Source: Warburgia ugandensis (lineage: Eukaryota > Streptophyta > Magnoliopsida > Canellales > Canellaceae). Taken from it: a DNA stretch of 64,000 bases. The translations under genes were made by a program, and so were the position numbers. The notes beneath the pieces are model-generated. The model saw nothing but the letters and a program-made list of their open reading frames with translations, did not search any database and was not told the origin of the DNA. Where the stretch lies: the NCBI GenBank assembly GCA_035236585.1, contig CP141127.1, positions 43,972,001 to 44,036,000 on the forward strand. The letters run 5' to 3'. Positions 19,976-57,450 of the stretch are shown piece by piece. Numbering within the stretch: position 1 is the first letter of the stretch; each line of letters opens with the position of its first letter.

Positions 19976-20027
<52 letters not shown>

Positions 20028-22938: not shown

Positions 22939-22947
22939 TATAAATAC
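22939..22947 (+). promoter_or_regulatory. TATA box of element A 5' LTR
   Basis: TATAAATAC about 567 bp after the LTR start, same position and sequence as in the LTRs at 45461 and 59005. A homopolymer C run follows within 3 bp. Confidence 0.7.
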
Positions 22948-25340
22948 AACCCCCCCCCCCCCCCACAAAACAAATCCTCTAAAAATGTTCATAAAATTTC
23001 CCACAAAATACCCTAAAAAATTAGATCTAGATTCATTTCCAAATTTCCAAAACTCACGCTTCTTTCATTTTCTCTCTCCTCTCTCTAGATTGGAACAAGA
23101 GACCTAAATTCAATTAGGCACTTTGTTGCAAATCAAATCTCACATACCACACCATTCATATTATCCTAGACTACCTTATCTATAAAATCCCTAAATCCAT
23201 TTCAAGATCCAACGGTGCAATCAACACGAAATCACAAAACAAGCGGGTATCGGGCTATCTTATTATCAAAGGGATATTTATTTAGAATTGGGCTGCAAAT
23301 CTATGTTTTTCTCCAATCAGGTGGGTGGAAACACTTCTTATACTTATTTCATGTTAGTTTATGTAAATTATATTTTTCTGAAATTAGTTTTATGTTAAAA
23401 ATTATAAAAATCAAGTAAGGATAAGAAACCTTAATTTTTGGATGATGGAAGGCCCAGATGGAAAATCTGAGCCATCCAATCAATCCAGAAGGGTCAAGAA
23501 CCCCGAGGGTAGAAATTGCAAGAACTTTTATCAAGTTTTGAGCCTATAATTGAAGAGGAATTGATTGGACGGTGCAAAACAGACTGTTCGATATTCCTAA
23601 GAAGATCGAGATCTTGGAACGCCGAAAGAAAACAAACCTTGTGGGAGCGTCTCCATGTGTGATACCGCCCAAACAGAATGGTTGCGCACCAGTGCTGGTC
23701 CCTGGGAGAGCATTATCGCATGCATCCCAGTGATGGGAGCACGGCGACGGTTCCGCCCGACTGATCCCAGCAGTCCGTTTCACTGTGAATTTCAATCATT
23801 AATTATGGAGCCATCTGAGCTATAAATTGAGATTAGAAAGAAGCTATGAAAACCTTGTAACATCTATTTTCCTCTGAAATCATAACATTTAGAAAATTCT
23901 TCATGAAACTTTTTATATTTGGGAAATACGCTTCCAATTTCTAAGATCATCAAGATCTGAGATGTTCAGATCTTGTGGATCTATTTTAATGATGATATAA
24001 TACTAAAATCGAGTAATATCCATGATTTATTTTGACAGATCTAACATAAAATGAGGAATCTACCATTTATGGTAGAAAAACCTTAAAAATGCAAAGGGAC
24101 CAACTTAATCAATAAGATCAAGTACGATTAGACCCTTGGGATGGATTGAATGAATGATAATATGATGGAATCCAATGAGATTATGTATTGAATATGACAA
24201 AAACAAAGGGTTATGATCTTTGGACCTTAATGGAGTAAAGGCCCTAAAATTAATTAAAACCCTTGATTAAAAGGAAAAGATCTAAGATCTAATGGTTGGA
24301 TCATAAGTAAAAGTTTCTAATAGTCGTAATCTAATTAGTTTAGTTGTCTTTTATTTGATAATAGAATTGTAAATGTAATTTATGTTGTAAATTAGGAAGG
24401 TCTGAAGAGGTGGATCACTACTTGAAGGTAGGAGGATTTTAGGAATGCATCTACATGGGATGTACATGTTGAATATATGATCTTATGTCTAGAAATGTTG
24501 ACAAGTGTAATGTTAACACTTGTATTAAATCCCCTAAAACCCTTATGATCCAACCAAACACATATGTAGTGGGGTTAAGTTAGACTTGAGGAAAAGTCTC
24601 TAAGTGAATATGGAACTAGAAGATATTCTAGCCCTAAGTAAATAGACAAATTGTCTGATACGTATGAAACCTATTTTACATGCAAGCATGGAGACTTGTC
24701 ATTTTGTTTTAAATAGGCATAAGCCTAAGGATGCTATGCTAGGAGAGTTCAGGGTTTGGCCACCCGCTTCTAGAAATTTGATGATTTGATGACACCTTGC
24801 CCTATGAGAGGCTAAATGCTGGGTGGGGCAATTATGGAAAGGCCACCACTAAGAAAGTCCTATCTCCCCATATGGGCAGTGACACAATATTTTCCACCGT
24901 GGTATTAATGGTGAACAGGGTAGTTATCCGAGCACGCTAGTACGGATCAGACTGCAGCATGGTAGTCCTTTAATTATTTTGCACTATGATGCACATGAGA
25001 TAGGTAGAGTGAAATGCCTTATGTTTTGGCATGATGAAATGCCAGGTAATTATATATTACTAGTATTTCCCTAGAAGGGAAATTTCCAGCATAGGACTAG
25101 CTGAAATATTGATTTCTCATAGTGGGAAGAATTGATCAGCTTAGTTGGGAATGTTATTTGACTACTTTCATCAATTTGATGGATTTACCTATATGCAATA
25201 TGTATGTATAACGATGTACATATATGATAAAGTAAAGAGATAGATACATGAGTATGTTTATGAATAGCAAGATTATGAAGCATTAGAGTTATACTGTCAA
25301 ATTATTATGCTTCTTGGATCCCCTACCAAGCATAGCTTAC

Positions 25341-25378
25341 TGAGATATTATAAATGTTTGAATGTTTACAATATCTCA
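25341..25378 (+). promoter_or_regulatory. Conserved LTR stem-loop (element A 5' LTR)
   Basis: TGAGATATTATAAA pairs with TTTACAATATCTCA (13 of 14 positions) around a 10-nt loop, directly after CCCTACCAAGCATAG. Confidence 0.65.
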
Positions 25379-25809
25379 GATGCAAAGAAGGAGAGTTAGG
25401 ATGTCGAGACTGAAGAAGACTTGGGAGAATAATCATCAGGGTATACCCCTTGAAGACATGTATTTTGTTTTGTTTGAGAGTATTGTATTGTAATGAGAGT
25501 TTCATTCTATGGTGAGCTTTGAGTTTTGGATTATGTAATTTGGAGAAGTATTGTAATGGAATTGGGTTATACTGTGAACAACTAGATGGATTCTAGAATT
25601 TAATAAAAGTATATTCCTTCAATGAAATTTTATCTTGTACAAAAATTCTACTTATGTTATGTATGAAGTGATGACTTGGGTTTTTCAAAACAAGTTCTAA
25701 AGAAAATAATTTTTGCTACTTTGTTTTGCTAAAAAAATTTACTACTAAGGGCCCTGCCTTTGAAAAATGTATTACAAAATGTGTTACAAAAACCCAGGTC
25801 ATCACAATT

Positions 25810-27050: not shown

Positions 27051-27079
27051 GGCAAAACCAAAAATTGCCCCTCGACACC

Positions 27080-27408
27080 AAGGAAGCGTATTTGCCATCA
27101 CCGACGACCATGCTAGACCAACTAATGCAGTGATTGAAGGTAGATTGCTTGTAGCTAACAACTATGCCAAAGTACTGTTTTATTCTAGATCTACGCATTC
27201 CTTTATATCTTGCATGTTTGCATCTAGTATACAACTATCAGTGAAAAACTTGGGATTTAATCTAGATGTAATAAGTCTAGTTGGAAAAATAGTTAAATTA
27301 CAAGAATACTTGCATAATGTACCCGTAGAAGTATTAGGAAAAAGAATGGACATAGACCTCATTTTACAAAACATGGTGGACTTTGACATCATACTAGGTA
27401 TGGACTCG
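27080..27408 (+). pseudogene. Element A protease, left part, fossil
   Basis: The open stretch from 27130 reads as the retropepsin domain of plant Ty3/gypsy: a THSFISCMFA active-site neighbourhood, then VPVEVLGKRMDIDLI and FDIILGMD just before the insertion. The LARD array enters within the GMDW motif region at 27409 and the protease sequence resumes at 42582, so array and protease share this exact edge. The enzyme would cut the polyprotein in the particle. Fossil. Confidence 0.88.
27404..27408 (+). repeat. Target site duplication of LARD array, left
   Basis: ACTCG before TG at 27409; ACTGG follows the array at 42582-42586 (4 of 5 match). The flanks lie next to each other in the protease motif when the array is ignored. 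Confidence 0.75.
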
Positions 27409-27766
27409 TGTAATGCCCGAGCAATTTACGATATTTTTAACAAAAATTGGACATTCTATGGGAAATAAACTATGTTAAATGTCTTACTTTATTTAAAATA
27501 GTAAATGAAGGAATTTGTATGGAAACTTGGTACCATTAGATTCTACTCAAAAAATGGAATCCAACACCTCAAAGAACTCCGAAAACGGAGTTCGTATGAA
27601 GAAGTTACGACCGTTCAAAGATTAGGGGCATTTCTGTAATTTAAACAAAAATGAGAAAGACAGAAAACATAGGGGCCGTTTTGATAACAGCACCCCTCTT
27701 CTTCTTCCTCTAGATTTCTCTAGAAACCCAAGTTTCCAGAGAAATCCGCCACCGCCATAGCAAGGC

Positions 27767-27775
27767 TATAAAAAG
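27767..27775 (+). promoter_or_regulatory. TATA box of LARD LTR 1
   Basis: TATAAAAAG about 358 bp after the LTR start; the same sequence occurs in LTR 2 (34010) and LTR 3 (40259). Confidence 0.75.
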
Positions 27776-28149
27776 CCCTATCTCCCCCCTCTCCAAACCA
27801 GGATTTTTTCAGTCATTTGGGACTGGGGTTGCCGGCAAAAATCGGAAACCCAGTTTCCCTGTGATTTTCGACAACGGCTAGGACCATCAGGCCGGCCATT
27901 CCCCTTCTTTATTTTCCCCATTTCTTCTCTGGCATCACCCAAAAACAGGGTTTTTCCCATCATTGAGTTTTCCGGTGGCATGGAGTTTTAGCCGGAACGG
28001 AGGTCTACCACCGACGATAGGCACTCCCTAGGCTACCCAGGTAAGCCGTTTTTCCCTTTCTCTCAATTTTGCTTCACCCAGGCCAGATCCATGCCGGATC
28101 TGGTCTTTTCCTAGTCGATTTTTCCAATCGGTTTTCCTAGCTAGAAAAC

Positions 28150-28560
28150 GTCCCAAGCTCCAACTGGCTCTGTATGAACAAGGCATCCCAGGGATGCCAT
28201 GCTTCACGTGCGCTTGGGACAGGGTCCCTGGGACGGGTTTCAGGCATATAGCAGTGCACACACTATCCCTGGTATGGCCTTCGGGTGCGCGCGCGACGTG
28301 GGGCACGGGTCCAGGCTCGACCAGGATGCACGGGGTGCCCTCGGAGCTGAGATGCGCCATGCTACACCAAAGGTGATTCTGTGCGATGCCATCCAGGATG
28401 CACGTCATAGCGCATCACTTGAGCATGCATGTGCGCATGCAAAAAGGGGTCCTTGGCACGGCCTTTGGGCGCGCACGCACATGAGGCCGTCGTGGTTCAA
28501 CCAGGATGCACAGGTGTCCTGGGAACTGGGACACGCAAACCTAATGAGACTATAAAGTTA
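28150..28560 (+). repeat. GC-rich patterned segment of LARD LTR 1
   Basis: A GC- and CpG-rich island in AT-rich DNA. CCAGGATGCAC occurs at 28321, 28393 and 28501, spacings of 72 and 108 bases, both multiples of 36. Related copies recur in LTR 2 (34537, 34609, 34715) and LTR 3. Palindromic GCGCGC-type stretches are frequent. Confidence 0.6.
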
Positions 28561-29655
28561 GGATCATGGGACAATTTATAGAGTTAACCATTGAATAGTA
28601 GATGCATATTATAGGATCTAGCCTGACAATGAATTAGGCAAGGACCCATGGACCTTAAAAGGAAGATCTAGCAATCTAATTTCTAAATAGATCGAAATTA
28701 ATAAGGAGTCCTCATTATCCATTCATATCCAGGAGTTTATAAACGAGACCTAGGGTTGGGTTGAGTGATGAAGGACGCGACTCCAGGAGACTTCGAGGTA
28801 GGTGTTCTATCCCTACTAGACTTTTTAAAAGAACCCATGATTGTCTTGAGAATGCATGTTTTAAGTTTAAGTTATTTGACTTGTTTAGCATGACATAATT
28901 TCATAAATAAATTCAACATGCATATGACAAATACATTATGCATAGACATGTTTTGCAAACAATTGCATATATTGTATGATTTGTGAGCATTGAGTTTTTG
29001 ATAGATTGCATGTCCTTGAGGGTTACCAAAAGACGCTGGGTAGGCAATTGTGAGGGACCCAAAGAGGACAGGTTTTGAAAAAGAGGTTTTTGCATGTTCC
29101 TTCATATATGATTTGGGCTAATAAGCTCGCGGTCACTATGTTGAGAGGTCTGGGGTGGCCTCCTAGCCTCTAACACTATTAGGTGGAATGGGTACCACGC
29201 CCAAAATGGGCATGTCCCTGCTTCGATTGCATGTGGTACAGGGGGCTACCACTGGTGTCATGGCACTAGGTCAAAGTGTCATATGCACCGTGGAGGCTAT
29301 GACCCTGTGTCCCTAGCTACCTAGGGACCACACGGCGGCGAGGTCGTGGGCATAGTGGGCCCTCTGGTTTGAGGATTTACTTGCATTGCATATGGCATGA
29401 CATGAGGTTGGTCGACCATACCATATATCCATGAGTTGGATTCAGTTGAGCATCTTATGGATATCATTATGTTTATGATATATATATGATACTTTCGACT
29501 TGGATTATGCGATTCTTTAAGTGGTCAATATTCCAATTCGATAATGGTTTTTAATATCGATATTGAACATGATTGTTCGAACATGCACATGTTTTAAAGA
29601 GCATATGATTTTAAACATAGCATGCATTGTAAAACTAGTAGTGATAGACTCCTAC

Positions 29656-29674
29656 TGAGTATAGTATATACTCA
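29656..29674 (+). promoter_or_regulatory. LTR stem-loop (LARD LTR 1)
   Basis: TGAGTATA pairs with TATACTCA around GTA. It sits in the 3' part of the LTR, about 400 bp from the end, comparable to the longer hairpin of the A and C LTRs. Confidence 0.6.
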
Positions 29675-30071
29675 CCCAATCCTTAACATTTTTCAGGACA
29701 GCTCCATTCAGGAGTAGAAGATGCCTCAGGAAATGTTAGTGCTACGAGCAAGTAAATCAAAAGAGACAATTATGCATGTATGTAAACACTCTACCCTTTG
29801 GACATGTATTTTTGTTTATTTATAGTTGGGCTATGAGCTGTGATTGGATAGACCTGGTAAAAACATTTATGATTTCTGAAGTTTTTCAAAAAACTACTTT
29901 GGTTGTTGTGAAAGCAAATGACACTCGGGGTTCTCAAAATGAGTTTAAAACTAAAGATTTTCCACTGCGTTGCATGGTTTTTATAAAATGGTTTTCAAAT
30001 AGGGATGCATCCTACCTTAGGAATTAGATATTGCATTTAAAAATGCATGGAAAAACTCGGGCCGTCACAGT

Positions 30072-30084
30072 TGGTATCAAAGCC
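30072..30084 (+). other. Primer binding site, LARD unit 1
   Basis: TGGTATCAAAGCC, one base from the complement of initiator Met-tRNA. Confidence 0.88.
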
Positions 30085-33000
30085 CAGGTTCTATCCTTTC
30101 ACAGCCAGTCCAGCATGTCCAAGGGTCATAGACAATAGAGAAAATCAAGAAGTAGTATAAATAGAAGTAGTAGAGATGACTACTTCTATTTGAGGATTAC
30201 AATATTAATGCTCAAAGCAGTTTACCATAAATAAATAGGTGAAACACAGCTTGGTTTAACAAATAATTTGGCAGAGGATAGTGCAACCCTTATCCAAAAT
30301 CTAGTCTAAGACGACTTGAGGATTAAGGATTGTTGTGTAGTGCAAATATGAAAACTCATATATGGATCATATTATGATGAGAATGATGAAGGAAGATGTT
30401 AGTGAACTTATTAGTAGATAGTTCTAACCTATAATAGATCAATCTCACTAAAGGTGAGAAAATCGAAGAACCTAGATGGCAATCTTACCCTTCTAAAGAA
30501 TATCAAAATATGAGTACACTATCATATGATATGAGTATGATAGGGAATGTAAAAGACAGACTTTGAGAAGATTTCGATGATAATCTAAGAGGGATGAGAA
30601 TGCAAGATGATGCGAGGGGATAACTGTGACTCATACTAGATTACAAAGGCATGAATCCTGAAGGGCTTAGCTCAATTTTTGGATACCTTCATTGGAGTCT
30701 CATGAAGAGTGAAGTGATATCGAATAATAACTACCTGAGTATTATGGAGCAAATCAGAAGATGTATACAAGTGACATATTATGTGATTAAGAGAAACATA
30801 ACACGAATATGATAGGGAAATTAATTCGACCGAGTTATCAAAAGATTTTGATGATAATACTAAGGATGATAATAGATTGATCCTAACATGAACTTGTAAC
30901 AAAAGTATAGCATGATCAAAATGTCAATGCCACTATTAAGACATTGTATGAATTTTATTGAGGCTATAGGCAATTGAGGATTTCAATGATCTTAAGACAG
31001 TTTAGAATTTCTTAGAAGCATTCAGTTTATCATATCTGTTAAGTAAAGAAGTAGATGCAGTATCAATTATATGCAACAAAGCACATGAAGACATTGATCT
31101 AGGTAGACAAAAATGAGGATTTTGAAGAAAAGAAAGAAAGAGATAGAGCTGTAACTACCAGTATTCAATGAATATTGAATATTCAAAAGAAAAAGGTCAT
31201 GACTTTATTGAGGAAAGAATAGATCCATAGAAATCTTTCATCTTGAATCATCTGGGAAGATAAACCAATCAACTTCGAAGGAATGATAATAGATGAGTTG
31301 GTGATCTTATTGTAAAAGAGTATAAAAGAGAGAAAGCATATGGGGTTTAAGACTTTGAGTAGAGTATCAAATTTCAGGAGATTATGCCACAAGAAATTTT
31401 GGAAGAGGAATGGTGACCAACTAGAAATTAAATTCTACAAATGGTTTGATATCAATTATTACAATTAGATTATTATCGGATCCATTAGCTTATGGGGAAC
31501 ACTAATGGATATAATCCATAAAAAGGAAAATTTGGTGATATCCCACCTTGCTAATAAAGTATATTGAAAAAGGAATTAAGCCGGGACAGTGACTTGTCCA
31601 TTTAGCAAGTAGGGTACCATCAAGGATCAAATTGAGGTCTTACTATCATAGATTGGAAGACAAAAAATCTTAAGACCATTATTTAGTCATTACCTTTAGA
31701 GTACTGTTGACTAAATAAAGGTATCCCACCCTAATTAATCAAGTATGTTAGTATCTATGAGTTAGTAGTCGAAGTTATATACTCAGAGGGATATTATAAG
31801 TATTTGGACATGAGTGTTACCTAAAAGAAGTTACTTGTTAGACTAAGTCATTTGAGGGTGTGAGGTCAGTTGATTAGGCCACATCAAGGAGTTGATTAGC
31901 CCACATCATGGAGGAGCTACAAGTAAAATAAATACAGTAACAATTGAGAAAGAAGAAAAATAAGGAGCGATCTCCACCAGTGAGATAGATTTTTCCAAAC
32001 CTAAATAGATACCATAACAAACCATAGAAATCACTGTGGGTCTGAAAGATGCTACTGACTTAGATTGAAAAGAAAGGTAGATAAGTACTGATCACTTTAG
32101 AGACCCTTGAGCTTATGACAAAGATATATCTGGAAACAGATCAATAAGTAATCAAATAAAGTCTATCTATATGTCTACAAAAATGTTCCATGCTTACCGG
32201 AGTGTTTTTCAAATTTGATGATTTAGCAGCTTCAGCATAACTTGATGTAGTAGCTATTGAACGAGGACTGCTATTGTAAGCTAAGTATGAGGAGGCACTT
32301 GAAGGATAAAATTTGAGGAATTGAGAAAATCACTACTTATACCTCCTGACAATACAGACTGCATGGTTGACGATAAAGCCTTGGTAAAAGATTGAACAAT
32401 ATATTGACATAGGGAATGGAAGGAGAAAAGGTGAGATGGCTAGCACACTATAAGGTGAAGATTTAATGTTACGTTGCCTTTAGACAAATAGTTAGTTGTT
32501 ATGAGCATATACCAAGTATGAAAAATCAATTGAAGGAATTTCCTAAGGACTCACCCTACTGGATTGATTATAGAACTTTTGGATTGAAAGGTTACAAAGA
32601 AAACTATCAAGCAAAGAAAGGACAAAGAGGATGATGACAAAGGATTCAACCATGACCTAGTAAGGGTACTCGGTTATGAATAAGAGACTTTTTGCTTTAC
32701 ATAAATGGGAACATTATTGAAAATCCTAATAACCAATTGATGTGAATAGTGAGATAAGGCCTCTGGACGAGAACATTTGACCCATGATGATGAATCGACC
32801 ATTAACATTTGACATGAGAAAAGCGTTTAATGAATTCAATAATTATGAAACTGGATATAGAGTTAGGACATTTTACTTTCAGTATATGATAAGGTCCTCG
32901 ATGGAAGATGCTACTAATTGGCTTTCATGATTTTATTTTGAATGTAACTTTGGTCGATGAATCAAGTCACATATGGAAAACGATAGACAGTTGAAATTCG

Positions 33001-33606
33001 AAGTTAATCAAGGGTTTGGCTATAGAGCACATGATACCATGTCAGTTATTGAAGTGTCTTGGGGAAAAATATAAAAGATAAGAAGCAAAGTTAGACACAA
33101 TAGAAAGAAGGTAATTTTTTTTTTACTCTTACTAATGACAAATAACCAACCATTAGAAGGAGATGTGGATGACGAAGAGATTACCAGATGAAAGACAAGA
33201 AGAAAAAGTGATTATCCTATGATATTCAAAATAAAATAGGAGAAATAAGATCATATGATCTCAAAGAAGTATGGAGTAATTTATACATGAATAAAGAAGC
33301 ATGATCCTACGAGGAGACTATCCTATACATGATGAGAAAGGTATAGGCATCTAAGGATTTTGAGATAGATGAATTACAGCTAGAAACTGGTATTGTTAAA
33401 CTGGCATGTATAGGAGTATGCATCAGAGTATGCAGCGAAAGCAGCCCTTATGGGTAAGGCTTAGTAGAAGGAACAATAAAAATGATAAATTGAGGTTGGG
33501 CCTAGATTTGATTCCTAAGGGGAGAATGCATTCACCAAGAAGTTATTTAAGAGACAAAATACCTTGAAGATGATAATTTATGGAATTTTGAGGACGAAAT
33601 TCTTTT

Positions 33607-33618
33607 AAGGGGTAATAA
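33607..33618 (+). other. Polypurine tract, LARD unit 1
   Basis: AAGGGGTAATAA immediately before the TG of LTR 2; the expected plus-strand primer site. Confidence 0.75.
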
Positions 33619-34009
33619 TGTAATGCCCCCGCAATTTACGCTATTTTTAACAAAAATTGAACATTCTATGGGAAATAAACTGTGCTAAATATTTTACTTA
33701 ATTTTAAATATTAAACAAAGGAATTTGTGAGGAAACTTAGTACCACTAGATTGTACTCGAAAAATGCAATCCAACGCCTCAAAGAACGTCAAAAACGGAG
33801 TTCGTATGAAGAAGTTATGGCCGTTCAAAGATTAGGGACATTTCTATAATTTAAACAAAAAACAAAAAAGACAGAAAACGCAGGGGGCCGTTTTGATAAC
33901 GGCACCCCATCTTCTTCTTCCTCTAGATTTCTCCAGAAACCCTAGTTTCTAGAGAAATCTTCCACCGCCAATGACGGCACCACCATTGGCAGCACCGCCA
34001 TAGCAAGGC

Positions 34010-34018
34010 TATAAAAAG
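34010..34018 (+). promoter_or_regulatory. TATA box of LARD LTR 2
   Basis: TATAAAAAG, about 391 bp after the LTR start. Confidence 0.7.
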
Positions 34019-35904
34019 CCCTATCTCTCCCCCCTCCAAAATAGGATTTTTTCAGTCATTTGGGGCTGGGGATTCTGGCAAAAATCAGAAAACCAGTTTC
34101 CCTACGATTTTCAGCAACGACCAAGACCATCAGGCCAGCCATTCCCCTTCTTTCTCTTCCCCATTTCTTCCCTGGCATCACCCAAAAACTGAGGTTTTCC
34201 CTTCATGGAGTTTTCTGGTGGCATGGAGTTTCAGAACCGGAATGGAGGTCTACCACCAGCGATAGGCGCTCCCTAAGCTACCCAGCTAAGCCCTTTCTCC
34301 CTTTCTCTCCATTTTGCTTCCCCCATGCAAGATCCATGCCGGATCTGGTCATTTCCCAGCCATTTTCCTAGCCAAAAAAGTCCCAAGCTCCAACTAGCTC
34401 TATACGAACAAGGCGTCCCAGGGACACCATGCTTCATGTGCGCCTGGGACTGGTTCCAAGCATACGATAGTGCGTACATTGTCCCTAGTACGGCCTTCGG
34501 GTGCACGCGCGATGTGGGGCATGGGTCCTGGGTCAACTAGGATGCACGGGGTGCCCTCGAAGCTAAGATGCACCATGCTACACCAAAGGTGCGTTCGTGC
34601 GATGCCATCCAGGATGCGCGTCATAGCGCGTCGCTTGAGGATGCATGTGGCGTGCAAAAGTGGTCCCTGGCAAGGCCTTTGGGCGTGCACGCACGTGAGG
34701 CGGTCACGGTTCAACCAAGATACACGGGTGTCCTGGGAACTGGGACACGCGAACCTAATGAGACTATAAAGTTAGGATCAGGGGACAATTTATAGAGGTA
34801 ACCATTGAATAGTAGATCCATATTATAGGATCTAGCCTGACAATGAATTAGGCAAGGACCCATGGACCTTAAAAGGCAGATCTAGCAATCTAATTTCCAA
34901 ATATATCAAAATTGATAAGGAGTCCTTGTTATCCATTCATATCCAGGAGTTTATAAACGAGACCCAAGGTCAGGTTGAGTGATGAAGGACGCGACTCCAG
35001 GAGCTTTCGAGGTAGGTGCTCTATCGCTACTAGACTTTTTAAAAGAACCCATGATTGTCTTGAGAATGCATGTTTTAAGTTTAAGTTATATGACTTGTTT
35101 AGCATGACTTAATTTTATATATAAATTCAGCATGCATATGACAAATACATTATGCATAGACATGTTTTGCAATCAATTGCATATATTGTAGGATTTGTGA
35201 GCATTGAGTTTTTGAAAGATTGCATGTCCTTGAGGGTTACCAAAAGACGCTGGAGTGCCCAAAAGATGCTGGGTAGGCAGTTGTGAGGGCCAGGAAGTTA
35301 TGAGGGACCCAAAGAGGACAGGTTTTGAAAAAGAGGTTTTTGCTATTTCATCGTATATGTTTTGGGCTAATAAGCTCATGGGTGCTATGCCGAGAGGTCT
35401 GGGGTGGCCTCCTAGCCTCTACCACTATTAGGTGGAATGGGTACCACGCCCAAAAAGGGCATGTCCCTGCTTCGATTGTATGTGGTACAGGGGGCTACCA
35501 CTGGTGTCACAGCACTGGGTCGAAGTGTCATATGCCCTGTGGAGGCTATGACCCTGTGTCCCTAGCAACCCAGGGACCACACAGAGGCGAGGTCGTGGGC
35601 ATAGTGGGCCCTCTGGTTTGAGGATTTACTTGCATTGCATATGGCATGACATGAGGTTGGTCGACCATATCATATATCCATGAGTTGGATTCAGTTGAGC
35701 ATCTTATGGATATCATTATGTTTATGATATATATATGATACTTTCGACTTGGATTATGCGATTCTTTAAGTCGTCAATATTCCAATTCGATAATGGTTTT
35801 TAATATCGATATTGAACATGATTGTTCGAACATGCACATGTTTTAAAGAGCATATGATTTTAAACATAGCATGCATTGTAAAACTAGTAGTGATAGACTC
35901 CTAC

Positions 35905-35923
35905 TCAGTATAGTATATACTCA
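35905..35923 (+). promoter_or_regulatory. LTR stem-loop (LARD LTR 2)
   Basis: TCAGTATA against TATACTCA around GTA; one unpaired position compared with LTRs 1 and 3. Confidence 0.5.
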
Positions 35924-36319
35924 CCCAATCCTTAACATTTTTCAGGACAGCTCCATTCAGGAGTAGAAGATGCCTCAGGAAATGTTAGTGCTACAAGCAA
36001 GTAAATCAAAAGAGACAATTATGCATGTATGTAAACACTCTACCCTTTGGACATGTATTTTTGTTTATTTATAGTTGGGCTATGAGCTGTGATTGGATAG
36101 ACCTGGTAAAAACATTTATGATTTCTGAAGTTTTTCAAAAAACTACTTTGGTTGTTGTGAAAGCAAATGACACTCGGGGTTCTCAAAATGAGTTTAAAAC
36201 TAAAGATTTTCCACTGCGTTGCATGGTTTTTATAAAATGGGTTTCAAATAGGGATGCATCCTACCTTAGGAATTAGATATTGCATTTGAAAATGCATGGA
36301 AAAACTCGGGCCATCACAG

Positions 36320-39300
36320 TTGGTATCAAAGCCCAGGTTCTATCCTTTCACAGCCAGTCCAGCATGTCCAAGGGTCATAGACAATAGAGAAAATCAAGAA
36401 GTAGTATAAATAGAAGTAGTAGAGATGACTACTTCTATTTGAGGATTACAATATTAATGCTCAAAGCAGTTTACCATAAATAAATAGGTGAAACACAGCT
36501 TGGTTTAACAAATAATTTGGCAGAGGATAGTGCAACCCTTATCCAAAATCTAGTCTAAGACGACTTGAGGATTAAGGATTGTTGTGTAGTGCAAATATGA
36601 AAACTCATATATGGATCATATTATGATGAGAATGATGAAGGAAGATGTTAGTCAACTTATTAGTAGATAGTTCTAACCTATAATAGATCAATCTCACCAA
36701 AGGTGAGAAAATCGAAGAACCTAGATGGCAATCTTACCCTTCTAAAGAATATCAAAATATGAGTACACTATCATATGATATGAGTATGATAGGGAATGTA
36801 AAAGACAGACTTTGAGAAGATTTTGATGATAATCTAAGAGGGATGAGAATGCAAGATGATGCGAGGGGATAACTATGACTCATACTAGATTACAAAGGCA
36901 TGAATCCTGAAGGGCTTAGCTCAATTTTTGGATACCTTCATTGGAGTCTCATGAAGAGTGAAGTGATATCGAATAATAACTACCTGAGTATTATGGAGCA
37001 AATCAGAAGATGTATACAAGTGACATATTATGTGATTAAGAGAAACATAACACGAATATGATAGGGAAATTAATTCGACCGAGTTATCAAAAGATTTTGA
37101 TGATAATACTAAGGATGATAATAGATTGATCCTAACATGAACTTGTAAGAAAAGTATAGCATGATCAAAACGTCAATGCCACTATTAAGACATTGTATGA
37201 ATTTTATTGAGGCTATAGGCAATTGAGGATTTCAATGATCTTAAGACAGTTTGGAATTTCTTAGAAGCATTCAGTTTATCATATCTGTTAAGTAAAGAAG
37301 TAGATGCAGTATCAATTATATGCAACAAAGCACATGAAGACATTGATCTAGGTAGACAAAAATGAGGATTTTGAATAAAAGAAAGAAAGAGATAGAGATG
37401 TAACTACCAGTATTCAATGAATATTGAATATTCAAAAGAAAAAGGTCATGACTTTATTGAGGAAAGAATAGATCCATAGAAATCTTTCATCTTGAATCAT
37501 TTGGGAAGATAAACCAATCAACTTCGAAGGAATGATGATAGATGAGTTGGTGATCTTATTGTAAAAGAGTATAAAAGAGAGAAAGCATATGGGGTTTAAG
37601 ACTTTGAGTAGAGTATCAAATTTCAGGAGATTATGCGACAAGAAATTTTCAAAGAGGAATGGTGACCAACTAGAAATTAAATTCTACAAATGGTTTGATA
37701 TCAATTATTACAATTAGATTATTATCGGATCCATTAGCTTATGGGGAACACCAATGGATATAATCCATAAAAAGGAAAATTTGGTGATATCCCACCTTGC
37801 CAATAAAGTATATTGAAAAAGGAATTAAGCCGGGACAGTGACTTGTCCATTTAGCAAGTAGGGTACGATCAAGGATCAAATTGAGGTCTTACTATCATAG
37901 ATTGGAAGACAAAAAATCTTAAGACCATTATTTAGTCATTACCTTTAGAGTACTGTTGACTAAATAAAGGTATCCCACCCTAATTAATCAAGTATGTTAG
38001 TATCTATGAGTTAGTAGTCGAAGTTATATACTCAGAGGGATATTATAAGTATTTGGACATGAGTGTTACCTAAAAGAAGTTACTTGTTAGACTAAGTCAT
38101 TTGAGGGTGTGAGGTCAGTTGATTAGGCCACATCAAGGAGTTGATTAGGCCACATCATGGAGGAGCTACAAGTACAATAAATACAGTAACAATTGAGAAA
38201 GAAGAAAAATAAGGATCGATCTCCACAAGTGAGATAGATTTTTCCAAACCTAAATAGATACCATAACAAACCATAGAAATCACTATGGGTCTGAAAGATG
38301 CTGCTGACTTAGATTGAAAAGAAAGGTAGATAAGTACCGATCACTTTAGAGACCCTTGAGCTTATGACAAGGATATATCTGGAAACAGATCAATAAGTAA
38401 TCAAATAAAGTCTATCTATATGTCTACGAAAATGTTCCATGCTTACCTGAGTGTTTTTCAAATTTGATGATTTAACAGCTTCAGCATAACTTGATGTAGT
38501 AGCTATTGAACGATGATTGCTATTGTAAGCTAAGTATGAGGAGGCACTTGAAGGATAAAATTTGAGGAATTGAGAAAATCACTACTTATACCTCCTGCCA
38601 ATACAGACTGCATGGTTGACGATAAAGCCTTGGTAAAAGATTGAACAATATATTGACATAGGGAATGGAAGGAGAAAAGGTGAGATGGCTAGCACACTAT
38701 AAGGTGAAGATTTAATGTTACGTTGCCTTTAGACAAATAGTTAGTTGTTATGAGCATATACCAAGTATGAAAAATCAATTGAAGGAATTTCCTAAGGACT
38801 CACCCTACTGGATTGATTATAGAACTTTTGGACTGAAAGGTTACAAAGAAAACTATCAAGCAAAGAAAGGACAAAGAGGATGATGACAAAGGATTCAACC
38901 ATGACCTAGTAAGGGTACTCGGTTATGAATAAGAGACTTTTTGCTTTGCATAAATGGGAACATTATTGAAAATCCTAATAACCAATTGATGTGAATAGTG
39001 AGATAAGGCCTCTAGACGAGAACATTTGACCCATGATGATGAATCGACCATTAACATTTGACATGAGAAAAGCGTTTAATGAATTCAATAATTATGAAAC
39101 TGGATATAGAGTTAGGACATTTTACTTTCAGTATATGATAAGGTCCTCGATGGAAGATGCTACTAATTGGCTTTCATGATTTTATTTTGAATGTAACTTT
39201 GGTCGATGAATCAAGTCACATATGGAAAACGATAGACAGTTGAAATTCAAAGTTAATCAAGGGTTTGGCTATAGAGCACATGATACCATGTCAGTTATTG

Positions 39301-39867
39301 AAGTGTCTTGGGGAAAAATATAAAAGATAAGAAGCAAAGTTAGACACAATAGAAAGAAGGTAATTTTTTTTTTACTCTTACTAATGACAAATAACCAACC
39401 ATTAGAAGGAGATGTGGATGACGAAGAGATTACCAGATGAAAGACAAGAAGAAAAAGTGATTATCCTATGATATTCAAAATAAAATAGGAGAAATAAGAT
39501 CATATGATCTCAAAGAAGTATGGAGTAATTTATACATGAATAAAGAAGCATGATCCTACGAGGAGACTATCCTATACATGATGAGAAAGGTATAGGCATC
39601 TAAGGATTTTGAGATAGATGAATTACAACTAGAAATCGGTATTGTTAAACTGGCACGTATAGGAGTATGCATCAGAGTATGCAGCGAAAGTGGCCCTTAT
39701 GGGTAAGGCTTAGTAGAAGGAACAATAAAAATGATAAATTGAGGTTGGGCCTAGATTTGATTCCTAAGGGGAGAATGCATTCACCAAGAAGTTATTTAAG
39801 AGACAAAATACCTTGAAGATGATAATTTATGGAATTTTGAGGACGAAATTCTTTTAAGGGGTAATAA
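36320..39867 (+). mobile_element. LARD-like array: internal region 2, non-coding
   Basis: 3,548 bp, primer site at 36322-36334, polypurine tract at about 39856-39867. It differs from internal region 1 by only scattered single bases, roughly one in a hundred by eye, and is collinear over its whole length. No coding domain recognised. Confidence 0.9.
36322..36334 (+). other. Primer binding site, LARD unit 2
   Basis: TGGTATCAAAGCC, identical to the site at 30072. Confidence 0.88.
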
Positions 39868-40258
39868 TGTAATGCCCCCGCAATTTACGCTATTTTTAAC
39901 AAAAATTGAACATTCTATGGGAAATAAACTGTGCTAAATATTTTACTTAATTTTAAATATTAAACAAAGGAATTTGTGAGGAAACTTAGTACCACTAGAT
40001 TTTACTTGAAAAATGGAATCCAACGCCTCAAAGAACGTCAAAAACGGAGTTCGTATGAAGAAGTTACGGCCGTTCAAAGATTAGGGACATTTCTATAATT
40101 TAAACAAAAAACAAAAAAGACAGAAAACGCAAGGGGCCGTTTTAATAACGGCACCCCATCTTCTTCTTCCTCTAGATTTCTCCAGAAACCCTAGTTTCTA
40201 GAGAAATCTTCCACCGCCAATGACGGCACCACCATTGGCAGCACCGCCATAGCAAGGC

Positions 40259-40267
40259 TATAAAAAG
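40259..40267 (+). promoter_or_regulatory. TATA box of LARD LTR 3
   Basis: TATAAAAAG, about 391 bp after the LTR start, the same offset as in LTR 2. Confidence 0.7.
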
Positions 40268-42167
40268 CCCTATCTCTCACCCCTCCAAAACAGGATTTTT
40301 TCGGTCATTTGGGGCTGGGGTTTCCGGCAAAAACCAGACACCCAGTTTCCCTACGATTTTCAGCAATGGCCAAGACCATCAGGCCAGCCATTCCCCTTCT
40401 TTCTCTTCCCCATTTCTTCCCTAGCATCACCCAAAAACTGAGTTTTTCCCTTCATCGAGTTTTCTGGTGGCATGGAGTTTCAGAACCGGAATGGAGGTCT
40501 ACCACCAGCGATAGGCGCTCCTAGGCTACCCAGCTAAGCCCTTTCTCCCTTCCTCTCCATTTTGCTTCCCCCATGCAAGATCCATGCCGGATCTGGTCAT
40601 TTCCCAACCAATTTTTCCAGCCATTTTCCTAGACAAAAAACGTCCCAAGCTCCAACTAGCTCTATACGAACAAGGCGTCCCAGGGACTCCATGCTTCATG
40701 TGCGCCTGGGACTGGTTCCAAGCATACGATAGTGCGTACATTGTCCCTAGTACGGCCTTCGGGTGCACGCGCGATGTGGGGCATGGGTCCTGGCTCAACT
40801 AGGATGCACGGGGTGCCCTCAAAGCTAAGATGCACTATGCTACACCAAAGGTGCGTTCGTGCGATGCCATCCAGGATGCGCGTCATAGCGCTTCGCTTGA
40901 GGATGCATGTGCGTGTGCAAAAGCGGTCCCTGGCAAGGCCTTTGGGCGCGCACGCACGTGAGGCGGTCACGGTTCAACCAAGATACACGGGTGTCCTGGG
41001 AACTGGGACACGCGGACCTAATGAGACTATAAAGTTAGGATCAGGGGACAATTTATAGAGTTAACCATTGAATAGTAGATCCATATTATAGGATCTAGCC
41101 TGACAATGAATTAGGCAAGGACCCATGGACCTTAAAAGGCAGATCTAGCAATCTAATTTCCATATAGATCGAAATTGATAAGGAGTCCTTGTTATCCATT
41201 CATATCAAGGAGTTTATAAACGAGACCCAAGGTCAGGTTGAGTGATGAAGGACGCGACTCTAGGAGACTTCGTGGTAGGTGCTCTATCGCTACTAGACTT
41301 TTTAAAAGAACCCATGATTGTCTTGAGAATGCATGTTTTAAGTTTAAGTTATATGACTTGTTTAGCATGACTTAATTATATATATAAATTCAGCATGCAT
41401 ATGACAAATACATTATGCATAGACATGTTTTGCAATCAATTGCATATATTGTAGGATTTGTAAGCATTGAGTTTTTGAAAGATTGCATGTCCTTGAGGGT
41501 TACCAAAAGACGCTGGAGTGCCCAAAAGACGCTGGGTAGGCAGTTGTGAGGGCCAGGAAGTTATGAGGGACCCAAAGAGGACAGGTTTTGAAAAAGAGGT
41601 TTTTGCTGTTTCATCGTATATGATTTGGGCTAATAAGCTCATGGGTGCTATGCCAAGAGGTCTAGGGTGGCCTCCCAGCCTCTACCACTATTAGGTGGAA
41701 TGGGTACCACGCCCAAAAAGGGCATGTCCCTGCTTCGACTGTATGTGGTACAGGGGGCTACCACTGGTGTCACAGCACTGGGTCGAAGTGTCATATGCCC
41801 CGTGGAGGCTATGACCCTGTGTCCCTAGCAACCCAGGGACCACACAGAGGCGAGGTCGTGGGCATAGTGGGCCCTCTGGTTTGAGGATTTACTTGCATTG
41901 CATATGGCATGACATGAGGTTGGTCGACCATATCATATATCCATGAGTTGGATTCAGTTGAGCATCTTATGGATATCATTATGTTTATGATATATATATG
42001 ATACTTTCGACTTGGATTATGGGATTCTTTAAGTCGTCAATATTCCAATTCGATAATGGTTTTTAATATCGATATTGAACATGATTGTTCAAACATGCAC
42101 ATGTTTTAAAGAGCATATGATTTTAAACATAGCATGCATTGTAAAACTAGTAGTGATAGACTCCTAC

Positions 42168-42186
42168 TGAGTATAGTATATACTCA
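42168..42186 (+). promoter_or_regulatory. LTR stem-loop (LARD LTR 3)
   Basis: TGAGTATA pairs fully with TATACTCA around GTA. Confidence 0.6.
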
Positions 42187-42581
42187 CCCAATCCTTAACA
42201 TTTTTCAGGACAGCTCCATTCAGGAGTAGAAGATGCCTCAGGAAATGTTAGTGCTACGAGCAAGTAAATCAAAAGAGACAATTATGCATGTATGTAAACA
42301 CTCTACCCTTTGGACATGTATTTTTGTTTATTTATAGTTGGGCTATGAGCTGTGATTGGATAGACCTGGTAAAAACATTTATGATTTCTGAAGTTTTTCA
42401 AAAAACTACTTTGGTTGTTGTGAAAGCAAATGACACTCGGGGTTCTCAAAATGAGTTTAAAACTAAAGATTTTCCACTGCATTGCATGGTTTTTATAAAA
42501 TGGTTTTCAAATAGGGATGCATCCTGCCTTAGGAATTAGATATTGCATTTAAAAATGCATGGAAACTCCCAGGCCGTCACT

Positions 42582-42586
42582 ACTGG
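42582..42586 (+). repeat. Target site duplication of LARD array, right
   Basis: ACTGG, against ACTCG at 27404-27408. Confidence 0.75.
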
Positions 42587-42820
42587 TTAGTAAAATACTG
42601 GGTAGTTATGGACTATCACAAGAAGAAAATCACATTTAACATACCAGGTGAGGAAGTATTAGTACTAGATGGGAAACACAATGACTTAAACAAATCCATT
42701 ATCTTAGTTATGAAGGCTGTCAAACATATGTCCAAGAGGTGTCAGGCATTTCTGGCAATAGTAGTTTCTTTAGATGTTGGACAGCCCATGATAACAGAAA
42801 TTGAAGTAGTCAAGGAATTC
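42582..42820 (+). pseudogene. Element A protease end and linker to RT, fossil
   Basis: Resumes after the LARD array. A readable segment at 42608-42823 (DYHKKKITFNIPGEEVLVL) is the part that normally follows GMDWL in Tekay-type polyproteins. Fossil. Confidence 0.8.
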
Positions 42821-42824
42821 TAAG

Positions 42825-43560
42825 ATGTTATTCCAGAAGAACTCCTCGGATTACCCCCACATAGAGAAATTGAGTTTACCATTGAAGGAAGGGTCTATGA
42901 GATTGTGCATTGGTTATAGAATGTTGAACAATGTCACAGTGAAAAATAGGTATCCCTTACCTTGCATTGATGATCTCTTTGGTCAACTCCAATCTGCTAA
43001 GGTCTTTTCCAAAATCGACCTTAGATCAGGATACCATCAATTTGTATTAAAGATGAAGACATATGCAAGTCAGCATTCAGAACTCAGTATGGGCATTACG
43101 AGTTTCTAGTAATGTCTTTTGGGCTGACCAATGCACCAACAATGTTTATGGATCTGATGAATAGAATCTTCCAAGAATTTTTGGATAAATTTGTGGTTGT
43201 ATTTATTGATAATATACTGAATTACTCTACCAATATCAAGGAACATCAAGAACACTTACTAATTGTACAAAATACCCTCATAACACATAAATTATTTAGT
43301 AAATTTAGTAAGTGTGAATTTTGGTTAGAGAAGGTCAATTTCTTAGGTCATGTAATTTCCAAGAATGGAGTAGAAGTGGACCCCTACCAAGGTTGAAGCA
43401 GTAATGAATTGGGAGAAACCTAAGATAGTAATAGAAATACGTAGTTTTCTTGGACTGGCATGATACTACCGTAGATTCACTCAAGGATTTTCCCGTATAG
43501 CCCTTCCTTTGACTACATTGACTAGAAAAGGGTACAATTCACTTGGACAGAAGAGTGTGA
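42825..43560 (+). pseudogene. Element A reverse transcriptase, fossil
   Basis: Readable RT motifs in normal order: [16 protein letters not shown] (about 42940), [10 protein letters not shown] (about 43012), [17 protein letters not shown] (from 43112), [11 protein letters not shown] (about 43196) and [15 protein letters not shown] (about 43340-43385). These are the fingers, palm and thumb landmarks of Ty3/gypsy RT, which copies the element RNA. The region has a few breaks and is a fossil, though better kept than element D. Confidence 0.92.
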
Positions 43561-43981
43561 AAATAGTTTCCACGAGGTAAAGAAAAGGTTAACTACAACA
43601 CCAGTATTGACTTTGTCATTAGGAAGTGGGGGATATGAAATATACTGTGATGCTTCAGGCAAAGGATTAGGAGGTGTATTGATGCAAAATGGGAAAGTCA
43701 TTGTTTATGCATTTAGACAATTGAAGAAACATGAAATAAATTACCTAGTACATGACCTAGAATTGGAAGCTATAGTTTTCGTGTTGAAAATTTGGAGACA
43801 CTATTTGTATGGAGAAAAATTCAGTTTATTCACAAATCATAAAATTCTCAAATACATCTTCACCCAGGCTTATTTGACCATGAGACAAAGAAGATGGAAG
43901 AAATATATCAATGACTATGATTTCGCCATCCAATACCATCCTAGAAAAGTGAACGTAGTAGCTAATACATTAAGTAAATAG
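43561..43981 (+). pseudogene. Element A RNase H, fossil
   Basis: The open stretch 43607-43981 gives [16 protein letters not shown], then [30 protein letters not shown] and [15 protein letters not shown]. This is the standard RNase H order of plant Ty3/gypsy, ending in the DALSR-like tail. In the family it degrades the RNA template strand. Confidence 0.92.
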
Positions 43982-44039
43982 CCAAGAGCTGTAGTCACAA
44001 ACATCACCATTAAATCAACTTTTGTAGAAAGAGTCCTTA

Positions 44040-45150
44040 AAGCCTAAGAAGAAGATACAGTAACTCAGGAATTGTGTAAAAAGATAGGATTTTGTAAGGG
44101 TACAGATGGGGGTATACATTTGCAAGAGAGATTGGTGGTTCCTTTAAATATAGACTTGAGAAAAGAATTATTACAAGAAGTCCATCAGTCAAAATTTTCC
44201 ATACACCCTGAGGGTACAAAGATGTATTAGGATTTGAAAAGAAACTTTTGGTGGGAAGGCATGAAAAGAGAAATAGGAGAATTTGTGGCTAAATGTCCAA
44301 ATTGTCAACAAGTAAAGGCTGAACACCAAAGACCAGTTTCAATGTTTGCAGAATGGAAATGGGACAACATTACTATGGATTTCATAGCAGGATTGCCAAG
44401 GACCTAGGTAGGTCATGACATGATTTGGGTGATTTTGGATAAGTTAACAAAGTCAGCACATTTCCTTCCAATTAGGCATAATCAGTCAGTTGACAGTCTA
44501 GCTAAGTTATACATCAATGAAATAGCAAGTCTTCATGGGATTTCACTATCTATCATCTCTGATAGGGATGGAAGATTTACTTCAAGATGTTGGAAGAGTG
44601 CACAACAAGCCTTGGGAATCTCACTTAAATTCAGTACAGCATTTCACCCCCAAACAGATGGTCAATCAGAAAGGACTATTCAGACTTTAGAAGATATGTT
44701 GAGAGCATGTGCATTAGATTGGAAAGGGAATTGGGATGAACATCTTCCATTAATAGAATTCACGTACAACAATAGTTTTCAAGCAAGTATTGGTATGGCA
44801 CCATATGAAGCATTGTATGGACAGCCATGTCAATCACCAACCTGTTGGAGTGAAGTTGGAGAGAGAAAGCTAATAAACTCAGAACTAGTGGCACATTGTA
44901 CAAACAAGGTTAGATTGATACAAAAGAGGTTGCTAACATCACACAGTCGGCAGAAGAGTTACACAGATAAAAGACGTAGAAACCTAGAATTTGATGGGGG
45001 GAGCATGTATTTTTGAAAGTATCACCAATCAAAGGAGTTATGAGGTTTGGAAGAAAAGGAAAACTTAGTCCTAGATTCATCGATCCATTTGAAATCCTAG
45101 AAAGAGTTGGTCCAATAGCTTACAAATTAGCCTTACTACCCCAACTCTCA
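44040..45150 (+). pseudogene. Element A integrase, fossil
   Basis: An HHCC-type zinc-binding part at about 44160-44310 (EVHQSKFSIHPE, then CPNCQQVKAEH). The catalytic core begins at ITMDFIAGLP (about 44370) and continues in the 198-codon open stretch 44420-45016: SDRDGRFTS, HPQTDGQSERTIQTLEDML, FTYNNSFQASIGMAPYEALYG. In the family it inserts the new DNA copy. Part of the chain is well kept; breaks occur outside the core. Confidence 0.93.
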
Positions 45151-45219
45151 GAAATATAATGTCTTTCACATATATATGCTATGGAAATACCTACAAAATG
45201 ACATGCATGCACTTCAAAG

Positions 45220-45420
45220 GGTGCTAGAAGAGCTAAACTAGACCTAACCTTCGAAGAGAAGGTGGCACGGATCTTGGACTATAAGGAACAGAAGCTAAGG
45301 ACTAAAACCATTCCGCTAGTCAAAGTCCTATGACAACATCACTCTGTTGAGGAAGCCACATGGGAAACAGAAGTAGAAATGAGGAAGACACACCCTAGTC
45401 TATTTGATTAAGTTATAGTA
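45220..45420 (+). pseudogene. Element A C-terminal chromodomain, fossil
   Basis: Short readable pieces ARILDYKEQKLRTKTIPLVK (about 45266-45325) and VEEATWETEVEM (about 45346-45381) match the C-terminal chromodomain of Tekay/Del-type chromoviruses, thought to steer integration to certain chromatin. This is the best lineage evidence in the window. Decayed. Confidence 0.75.
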
Positions 45421-45447
45421 TTACAAATTTTGAGGACAAAATTAGTA

Positions 45448-45460
45448 TCAAGGGGAAGAT
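45448..45460 (+). other. Polypurine tract of element A
   Basis: The purine-rich stretch TCAAGGGGAAGAT directly before TG at 45461. Confidence 0.8.
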
Positions 45461-46025
45461 TGTAATAACCCCAATTTTTGTAAATTGATTGAAAAAATCA
45501 ATAAAGTTTGAGTTTTCAGAAATTCCAAGCTAGTATAGGAGGTTATTGGAAATTCTCTTTTTATAAGATTAAAACATGATTGAAAAATTAGAAATTATGA
45601 ATGTACTTGAAAAGCCGATTGAAATTACACTAAGTACGTTCAATTTGGAGTTAAAATAAAAAATCCCTAATTTTCTTTATTTTTATGAATAAAAGGGTAA
45701 AATGGTAATTTTACCCATAAGTGAGAGCTAAGACATCAATATTTAGAATATAATCAGAAATAAAATTCTAGTGCCACTAAGTACGCTCAATTCCAAGTTC
45801 AAGAGAATAAAATGGATATTTCTCCACAAAAGGGCAAAATGGTCCTTTCATACCCTCGTGGGGCCCACAAATGAATCCAATGGTGAAGAAACATATAATG
45901 AGTGGTTAAGCCACTACTAGATGCTAGTGGAGAAGGAGGTGGTAGTGGAGGATCCAATGTTAATTTAATATTTAAAAGAATTAAAACATAATTATTATAA
46001 ATAATTATGAAAAATGCAAAACACT

Positions 46026-46033
46026 TATAAATA
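46026..46033 (+). promoter_or_regulatory. TATA box of element A 3' LTR
   Basis: TATAAATA about 565 bp after the LTR start, matching the 5' LTR. Confidence 0.7.
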
Positions 46034-49733: not shown

Positions 49734-49771
49734 TAAGATATTGTAAATGTTTGAATGTTTATAATATCTCA
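49734..49771 (+). promoter_or_regulatory. Conserved LTR stem-loop (element A 3' LTR)
   Basis: TAAGATATTGTAAA against TTTATAATATCTCA; one mismatch and one possible G-U pair. Confidence 0.55.
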
Positions 49772-50199: not shown

Positions 50200-50204
50200 T
50201 CCCA
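50200..50204 (+). repeat. Target site duplication of element A, right
   Basis: TCCCA, an exact repeat of 22368-22372. Confidence 0.95.

Positions 50205-57412: not shown

Positions 57413-57450
<38 letters not shown>

What the first reader, a model, noticed from the sequence alone, without database searches (positions are those of the whole stretch)
27409..42581. Tandem LTR-internal-LTR-internal-LTR array of a non-autonomous element
Three LTRs of about 2.7 kb and two 3.55-kb internal regions follow each other without spacer, each internal region with its own primer site and polypurine tract, and the array as a whole is flanked by a near-matching 5-bp duplication (ACTCG/ACTGG). Such arrays are known products of unequal recombination between LTRs. 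Here the units differ by only about one base in a hundred by eye, so the event looks recent.
Basis: partly seen in the sequence, partly recalled or inferred. Interest (0 to 1): 0.7.

Follow-up and report, generated by a model that had tools for sequence, protein, structure and literature searches.

The report
Two-unit tandem retrotransposon with hybrid LTR
An old plant retrotransposon was later duplicated into a two-unit array, apparently by unequal recombination between its own end repeats, and its middle repeat still looks like a hybrid of the two outer ones; such arrays are common in plants, but this one keeps unusual traces of how it formed.

Summary
The array is real in the assembly: LTR1-int1-LTR2-int2-LTR3, 27409-42581, no spacers. 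It sits in the protease gene of another retrotransposon; at 6 other loci both flanks abut, so this is one insertion (duplication ACTCG/ACTGG). "One base in a hundred" holds only for the internal regions (41/3549); LTR2/LTR3 differ by 2.3%, LTR1 from either by about 8%. LTR1's first ~2.0 kb is ~10% off; positions 2116-2560 are nearly identical in all three (1-3 of 445). Eleven ordinary copies have LTR pairs 7.0-9.3% apart in the 5' part: the insertion is old, the array younger (about 0.15-0.24 of its age, inferred). Over the first ~2.0 kb LTR2 groups with LTR3 (support 100, alternatives rejected); in the tail with LTR1 (support 97, alternatives not rejected, p 0.08). Unequal exchange predicts this; two insertions or a ready-made dimer do not. 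A ~0.45-kb conversion tract is extra. The kind is known and common; this copy adds datable evidence on mechanism. No reads were available; assembly error is unlikely but open.

The parts
27404..27408 (+). left copy of the target-site duplication, ACTCG
   Evidence: at 6 other loci the flanks join at ACT
27409..30069 (+). LTR1, 2661 bp; positions 1 to ~2013 ~10% from LTR2/LTR3, tail nearly identical to them
30070..33618 (+). internal region 1, non-coding, 3549 bp (primer site at its start, polypurine tract at its end)
   Evidence: longest stop-to-stop frame 83 aa; 9 of the 22 frames listed were scanned, no Pfam match
33619..36318 (+). LTR2, 2700 bp, the hybrid middle LTR: 5' part groups with LTR3, tail with LTR1
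36319..39867 (+). internal region 2, 3549 bp, 41 differences from internal region 1
39868..42581 (+). LTR3, 2714 bp; last ~100 bp keep old divergence; last base T where LTR1/LTR2 have A
29524..29968 (+). positions 2116-2560 of LTR1, a tract nearly identical in all three LTRs (inferred gene conversion)
   Evidence: LTR1-LTR3 1/445, against 21 expected from 11 control pairs
42582..42586 (+). right copy of the target-site duplication, ACTGG
27052..27408 (+). left flank: protease gene of the host retrotransposon (RVP_2)
   Evidence: E 3e-27 for the frame 27052-27468
42587..45460 (+). right flank: rest of the host element's protease gene and following pol region (read by eye, no domain scan)
   Evidence: contiguous with the left flank at 6 other loci

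Best explanation
One non-autonomous LTR element inserted once into the protease gene of an older retrotransposon (shown). Its two LTRs then diverged to about 10% in their 5' part (shown, if both come from that insertion, as the tree says). Much later, misaligned sister chromatids or homologues exchanged between the 3' LTR of one copy and the 5' LTR of the other. This gave LTR1-int1-LTR2-int2-LTR3, with LTR2 a hybrid: 5' part from the old 3' LTR (shown), tail from the old 5' LTR (suggested). A second exchange, gene conversion of about 0.45 kb, made positions ~2116-2560 nearly identical in all three LTRs; its order relative to the duplication is unresolved. Partner chromatid and pathway are inferred.
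For: Flanks abut at 6 other loci, each with the same 3-base overlap: one site, nothing lost. Tree of LTR positions 1-1992, 38 sequences: (LTR2,LTR3) 100, (LTR1,LTR2,LTR3) 100; the two other groupings of the three are 127.7 log units worse and rejected; 11 of 11 same-element control pairs and the presumed pair L035/L036 also come out as sisters. Of 169 sites in positions 1-2115 where LTR2=LTR3 differ from LTR1, 40 polarise as LTR1-derived, 38 as LTR2/3-derived, 91 undecided, as for two LTRs that began identical. Such sites stop at 2115; from 2116 to 2661 there are 0, against 7 with LTR1=LTR2 (at 3 of them, 2561, 2606 and 2649, the shared base is the rarer one among other copies) and 5 with LTR1=LTR3. 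Tail tree: (LTR1,LTR2) 97. Last ~100 bp: LTR1-LTR3 6/100, as in 10 controls (6.8%), LTR1-LTR2 3/101, LTR2-LTR3 9/100.
Against: The tail topology rests on few sites; the AU test does not reject the alternatives (p 0.08 for 2116-2661, 0.15-0.25 for 2550-2661). LTR1-LTR2/3 divergence in the 5' part (9.7-10.1%) is above all 11 controls (7.0-9.3%). In LTR positions 1-292, 39 other genome copies match LTR1 better (91-93%) than LTR2/LTR3 do (87.5%). Only 35 other LTR sequences of a very large family entered the tree. Outside CG/CHG contexts int1/int2 differ by 0.56% but LTR2/LTR3 (5' part) by 1.4%, more than the 1.5-fold faster 5' part of controls accounts for. One crossover alone does not homogenise positions 2116-2560.
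Confidence: 0.77

Rival explanations
1. The dimer was made before insertion, by template switching during reverse transcription or from a read-through RNA, and inserted whole.
For: One flanking 5-bp duplication and contiguous flanks fit a single integration. The model is in print (PMC1950507, whole text read).
Against: It predicts near-identical outer LTRs of the same age as everything else; here LTR1/LTR3 are 10% apart in the 5' part while LTR2/LTR3 are 2.4% and int1/int2 1.15% apart. If the dimer is as old as LTR1/LTR3, both internal regions and LTR2/LTR3 must have been homogenised later; if as young as int1/int2, LTR1's 5' part must come from another RNA, yet it is sister to LTR2/LTR3 in the tree.
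Confidence: 0.06
2. A DNA copy of this same element (cDNA, or a one-LTR circle) recombined into its parent locus; its LTR would carry the 3' LTR's U3 and the 5' LTR's U5.
For: The order '3'-LTR type, then 5'-LTR type' in LTR2 is also what the element's own cDNA would carry (from general knowledge of reverse transcription). Integrase-independent integration into pre-existing elements is cited for yeast in PMC11899658.
Against: A TATA-like box at LTR position 358/391 puts the U3 end near 390-420, not at ~2013-2115, so an early strand transfer inside R is needed (inference). The 11 control copies all have old LTR pairs, so there is no sampled sign of activity when the array formed. A circle excised from the locus and returned cannot be told from unequal exchange.
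Confidence: 0.1
3. Assembly artefact: two haplotypes of a one-unit allele joined head to tail inside the LTR.
For: A false join of haplotypes would mimic unequal exchange exactly, and 1.15% is a possible heterozygosity for an outcrossing plant (recalled).
Against: The longest identical runs are 389 bp between LTR1 and LTR3 and 245 bp between LTR1 and LTR2, too short for a usual long-read overlap (inference). The window has no N. Weak: at two other loci of this assembly an LTR of another family likewise has a polypurine-tract junction on its left and a primer site on its right.
Confidence: 0.06
4. Two neighbouring insertions of one family fused by recombination, losing what lay between.
For: Classical explanation of shared-LTR complexes (PMC1950507).
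Against: Left and right flanks are contiguous at 6 other loci, with the expected duplication; all three LTRs form one clade.
Confidence: 0.01

Closest known systems
Tandem LTR retrotransposons of rice, Arabidopsis, almond and cotton (Morales-Diaz et al. 2025, PMC11899658; parts 1-2 of 6 and passages read)
   Same: Alternating LTR and internal regions sharing inner LTRs, one short target duplication, mostly gypsy elements in rice; their locus TLI2 is likewise nested in another transposon.
   Different: All 28 arrays that they selected in rice Nipponbare carry coding domains; this element is non-coding. They report that they could not discriminate the mechanisms of formation; here 10% older LTR divergence lets the middle LTR be read as a hybrid.
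Triticeae complex elements and template-switching complexes (Sabot and Schulman 2007, PMC1950507; whole text read)
   Same: Three LTRs, two internal regions, flanking duplication.
   Different: Their template-switching class needs highly similar outer LTRs; here LTR1/LTR3 is the most different of the three pairs.
Cassandra/TRIM tandem arrays (PMC7215508, passages read)
   Same: Elements without gag, pol or env, in tandem, sharing LTRs.
   Different: Those are compact elements (passage; exact size not looked up); this unit is 6.2 kb with 2.7-kb LTRs.
LARD-type large non-coding LTR derivatives (recalled)
   Same: Long LTRs, about 3.5 kb of non-coding internal DNA with primer site and polypurine tract.
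   Different: Family membership and autonomous partner were not established.
LTR gene conversion in plants (PMC7251063, passages read, part of the abstract among them)
   Same: Converted stretches between LTRs of one element; converted lengths there most often 100-1000 bp.
   Different: Here the tract is shared by three LTRs of an array.

Membership tests
Tandem LTR retrotransposon (shared-LTR complex) | alternating LTR/internal, starting and ending with an LTR, no spacer | tested here: met
Tandem LTR retrotransposon (shared-LTR complex) | one insertion: contiguous flanks, one 5-bp duplication, none at inner junctions | tested here: met
   6 loci hold both flanks overlapping by the same 3 bases; 5-mers match at 4 of 5; inner junctions abut directly
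Tandem LTR retrotransposon (shared-LTR complex) | array confirmed by spanning long reads | not testable with these tools
   no reads held
Product of unequal LTR-LTR exchange | middle LTR: 5' part like the 3' outer LTR | tested here: met
   support 100, alternatives rejected by 127.7 log units
Product of unequal LTR-LTR exchange | middle LTR: 3' part like the 5' outer LTR | tested here: inconclusive
   support 97, but AU p 0.08 for the alternatives
Template-switching complex | outer LTRs highly similar, same age as inner ones | tested here: not met
   LTR1/LTR3 211/2642 against LTR2/LTR3 63/2698
Fusion of two adjacent insertions | no matching flanks; sequence between the insertions lost | tested here: not met
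LARD (non-autonomous, large; definition recalled) | long non-coding internal region with primer site and polypurine tract | tested here: met
   (9 of 22 frames scanned)
LARD (non-autonomous, large; definition recalled) | named family or autonomous partner identified | not tested
   no repeat library and no species name were at hand

The most novel reading that the evidence does not exclude
A short conversion first restored about 0.45 kb of near-perfect identity inside LTRs that were otherwise 10% apart, and that patch licensed the later unequal exchange; conversion tracts would then decide which old elements can turn into arrays. Longest identical LTR1-LTR3 run: 389 bp, in the tract; the next is 88 bp, just upstream, and the median run in the first 2 kb is 6 bp. 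The order of the two events is not shown.
Probability: 0.3. Interest if true: 0.5.

Novelty: new member of a known kind. Interest (0 to 1): 0.38.

Why it matters
How tandem LTR retrotransposons form is stated as open in a 2025 survey (PMC11899658): inserted ready-made, or made later by recombination. Arrays whose LTRs are still nearly identical cannot tell (inference). Here the outer LTRs had diverged by about 10% before the duplication, so the order of insertion and duplication, and the hybrid middle LTR, can be read. The test (tree of LTR 5' part against tree of tail, with ordinary copies as clock) can be run on other old arrays.

Tried and rejected
Mosaic LTR1 by ectopic recombination with another copy: considered first, because LTR1's 5' part is ~10% off. 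Dropped when ordinary copies proved to have LTR pairs 7.0-9.3% apart there and LTR1 came out sister to LTR2/LTR3.

Census of arrays of this family: the pattern search counts 719 forward and 700 reverse matches but lists only the first places; most listed places have a second spelling, and the three loci of it that I followed up belong to another family, so it cannot serve as a count. In the 20 copies fetched there was no second internal region, but each stretch reaches only a few hundred bases past the element.

Absolute dating was not attempted: species and mutation rate unknown. That the genome is a plant's is inferred; no call names it. 'Ty3/gypsy' rests on the RVP_2 match and on recalled motifs and gene order. 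If the exchange was between homologues, allelic differences inflate the apparent age.

Dropped rows: of the 20 fetched copies, 11 gave both LTRs, 5 (L019, L021, L023, L025, L026) one LTR, and 4 (L014, L015, L028, L029) none to the alignment, because of incomplete LTRs. L027 was left out and of the last 101 bp (end of its 3' LTR misplaced). In one search L017 counts 222/1201 in positions 391-2013, against 9.2% in its pairwise alignment: its 5' LTR is partial and badly placed in the multiple alignment; that row inflates the control of that one segment, which is not used above. The 8 stretches end before the tail, so the tail tree has 30 sequences. LTR3's last base was left out.
Full report
OBSERVATION. 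The window lies in a 1.12-Gb genome of 14 contigs at C2:43972001-44036000. Self-comparison gives one 9-kb direct repeat, 27409-36317 against 33619-42580, plus a third LTR. Reading the junctions gives LTR1 27409-30069, int1 30070-33618, LTR2 33619-36318, int2 36319-39867, LTR3 39868-42581, each joined directly to the next. Differences: int1/int2 41/3549; LTR2/LTR3 63/2698; LTR1/LTR2 199/2628; LTR1/LTR3 211/2642.

SITE. The left flank encodes a retroviral aspartyl protease (RVP_2, E 3e-27) and the right flank, read by eye, continues the same gene. I searched the genome with each flank apart. Six loci appear in both lists of 39 others (C8:51.300, C9:45.995, C2:40.162, C3:62.503, C11:41.575 and C1:48.963 Mb). 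In all six the two matches overlap by exactly three bases, ACT. The flanks are thus uninterrupted there, and the array fills one site with a 5-bp duplication, ACTCG on the left and ACTGG on the right, one base apart. This excludes fusion of two neighbouring insertions.

ELEMENT. The longest stop-to-stop frame in int1 is 83 aa; 9 of the 22 frames of 45 aa or more were scanned and match no Pfam family. The end of int1 resembles the end of the host element's internal region (TTTTGAGGACRAAATT...AAGGGG), so I take it for a non-coding relative of the same gypsy lineage (inference). The closest internal copies elsewhere are 95% identical over the first 500 bases. Eleven have two LTRs that could be aligned: the 5' part differs by 7.0-9.3%, and in ten of them the last 650 bp by 2.2-6.2% (the 14% of L027 comes from a misplaced end).

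LTR TREES. LTR1 against LTR2/LTR3 is 9.7-10.1% in the 5' part, a little above every control, and 1.1-1.5% in the last 650 bp. In an alignment with 35 other LTR sequences (27 from the 20 copies, 8 picked from genome-wide lists), the nearest relatives of LTR1 over positions 1-1992 are LTR2 (9.7%) and LTR3 (10.2%), next 13.0%. The tree puts (LTR2,LTR3) together with support 100 and joins LTR1 to them with support 100; all 11 control pairs and the presumed pair L035/L036 are sisters in the same tree. LTR1 and LTR2/LTR3 are thus best read as the original 5' and 3' LTR of one insertion. Mixed evidence by segment: in positions 1-292 thirty-nine other copies match LTR1 better (91-93%) than LTR2/LTR3 do (87.5%). 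In positions 392-1192 two other copies score slightly higher than LTR3 (914 and 903 bits against 902). In positions 1193-1992 LTR2 scores above every listed copy (1136 against 1124).

HYBRID LTR2. Sites where LTR2 and LTR3 agree against LTR1 number 169 in positions 1-2115 and none in 2116-2661. In the tail the pattern LTR1=LTR2 occurs 7 times and LTR1=LTR3 5 times. At only three of the seven (2561, 2606, 2649) do LTR1 and LTR2 share the base that is rare among the other copies, which is the kind that supports a group. The tail tree gives (LTR1,LTR2) 97, but the AU test leaves the alternatives at p 0.08. So the 5' half of the prediction of unequal exchange is firmly met and the 3' half is suggested.

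CONVERSION TRACT. In positions 2116-2560 LTR1-LTR3 differ at 1, LTR1-LTR2 at 2 and LTR2-LTR3 at 3 of 445 sites, where 21 would be expected at the age of the 11 controls. In the last ~100 bp LTR1-LTR3 differ at 6 of 100, like 10 controls (6.8%). A tract of about 0.45 kb was therefore homogenised. One crossover cannot do this to both outer LTRs (inference). Control L017 shows a similar stretch (7/440 in the same positions), so such conversions also seem to happen in one-unit copies.

AGES. LTR2/LTR3 5' part 2.4% against LTR1/LTR3 9.7% gives 0.24 of the insertion's age. LTR1/LTR2 tail 0.9%, scaled by the ratio of 5' part to tail in 10 controls (7.84/4.94), gives about 0.15; int1/int2, if it evolves like the tail, about 0.19 (inference). 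Outside CG/CHG contexts int1/int2 is 0.56% and LTR2/LTR3 (5' part) 1.42%, a gap larger than the control ratio, which I cannot fully explain.

MECHANISM. Unequal exchange after insertion explains the single site, the old outer LTRs, the young unit-to-unit distances and the hybrid. A dimer inserted ready-made does not explain outer LTRs whose 5' parts are four times as diverged as those of LTR2/LTR3. Recombination of the element's own cDNA or circle is not excluded. A TATA-like box at LTR position 358/391 suggests that the switch at ~2013-2115 lies far inside R, which makes cDNA less likely. An assembly join of two haplotypes would look the same and needs reads.

LITERATURE. Tandem LTR elements are common in plants: 266 tandems in a rice pangenome, 130 structures in cotton (PMC11899658; parts 1-2 of 6 and passages). 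The same paper says that it could not discriminate between the mechanisms. Template switching is proposed in PMC1950507 (whole text), unequal crossing-over among other routes in PMC7215508 (passages), and LTR gene conversion in PMC7251063 (passages). Five searches of the library (15, 15, 1, 10 and 10 papers listed, the first two of longer lists) showed no title or abstract beginning that reads a hybrid middle LTR against old outer LTRs. Most subscription journals are not held, so this is no claim of priority.

VERDICT. Known kind, good example. The interest lies in its being old enough for the order of insertion and duplication to be read.

Noticed in passing
22373-50199: The array lies in a gypsy-type element with LTRs 22373-25806 and 45461-50199 and a perfect 5-bp duplication TCCCA (22368-22372, 50200-50204); matching LTR pieces are 85-91% identical. 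The 3' LTR is about 1.3 kb longer.
   Followed up: partly
18926-22372 and 50303-51619 against 53856-58201: Direct repeats on both sides of that host element (80-87%) suggest that it in turn sits inside one LTR of a still older element: a four-layer chronology.
   Followed up: no
L047 and L043 (C1:58.893-58.902 Mb); L046 and L044 (C4:27.273-27.282 Mb): Relatives of the host family seem to form arrays too: an LTR with a polypurine-tract junction on its left and a primer site on its right, and a second same-strand primer site 9.1 kb (C1) or 8.5 kb (C4) away; at C1 about 1 kb of pol 3' end precedes the LTR, at C4 only 54 bp match. A third pair at C6:30.948-30.958 Mb was not tested on its left side.
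   Followed up: partly
L017: A one-unit copy whose two LTRs differ by 8.8% in the 5' part but 2.0% in the last 545 bp, as if its tail had been converted as well.
   Followed up: no
1-3128 (minus strand) and 59005-63437: Further LTR copies of the host-type family in the same window.
   Followed up: no
27409-27468: The protease reading frame of the left flank runs on into LTR1 for 19 codons before a stop, and the Pfam match extends into it, to residue 136 of 138; probably chance.
   Followed up: no
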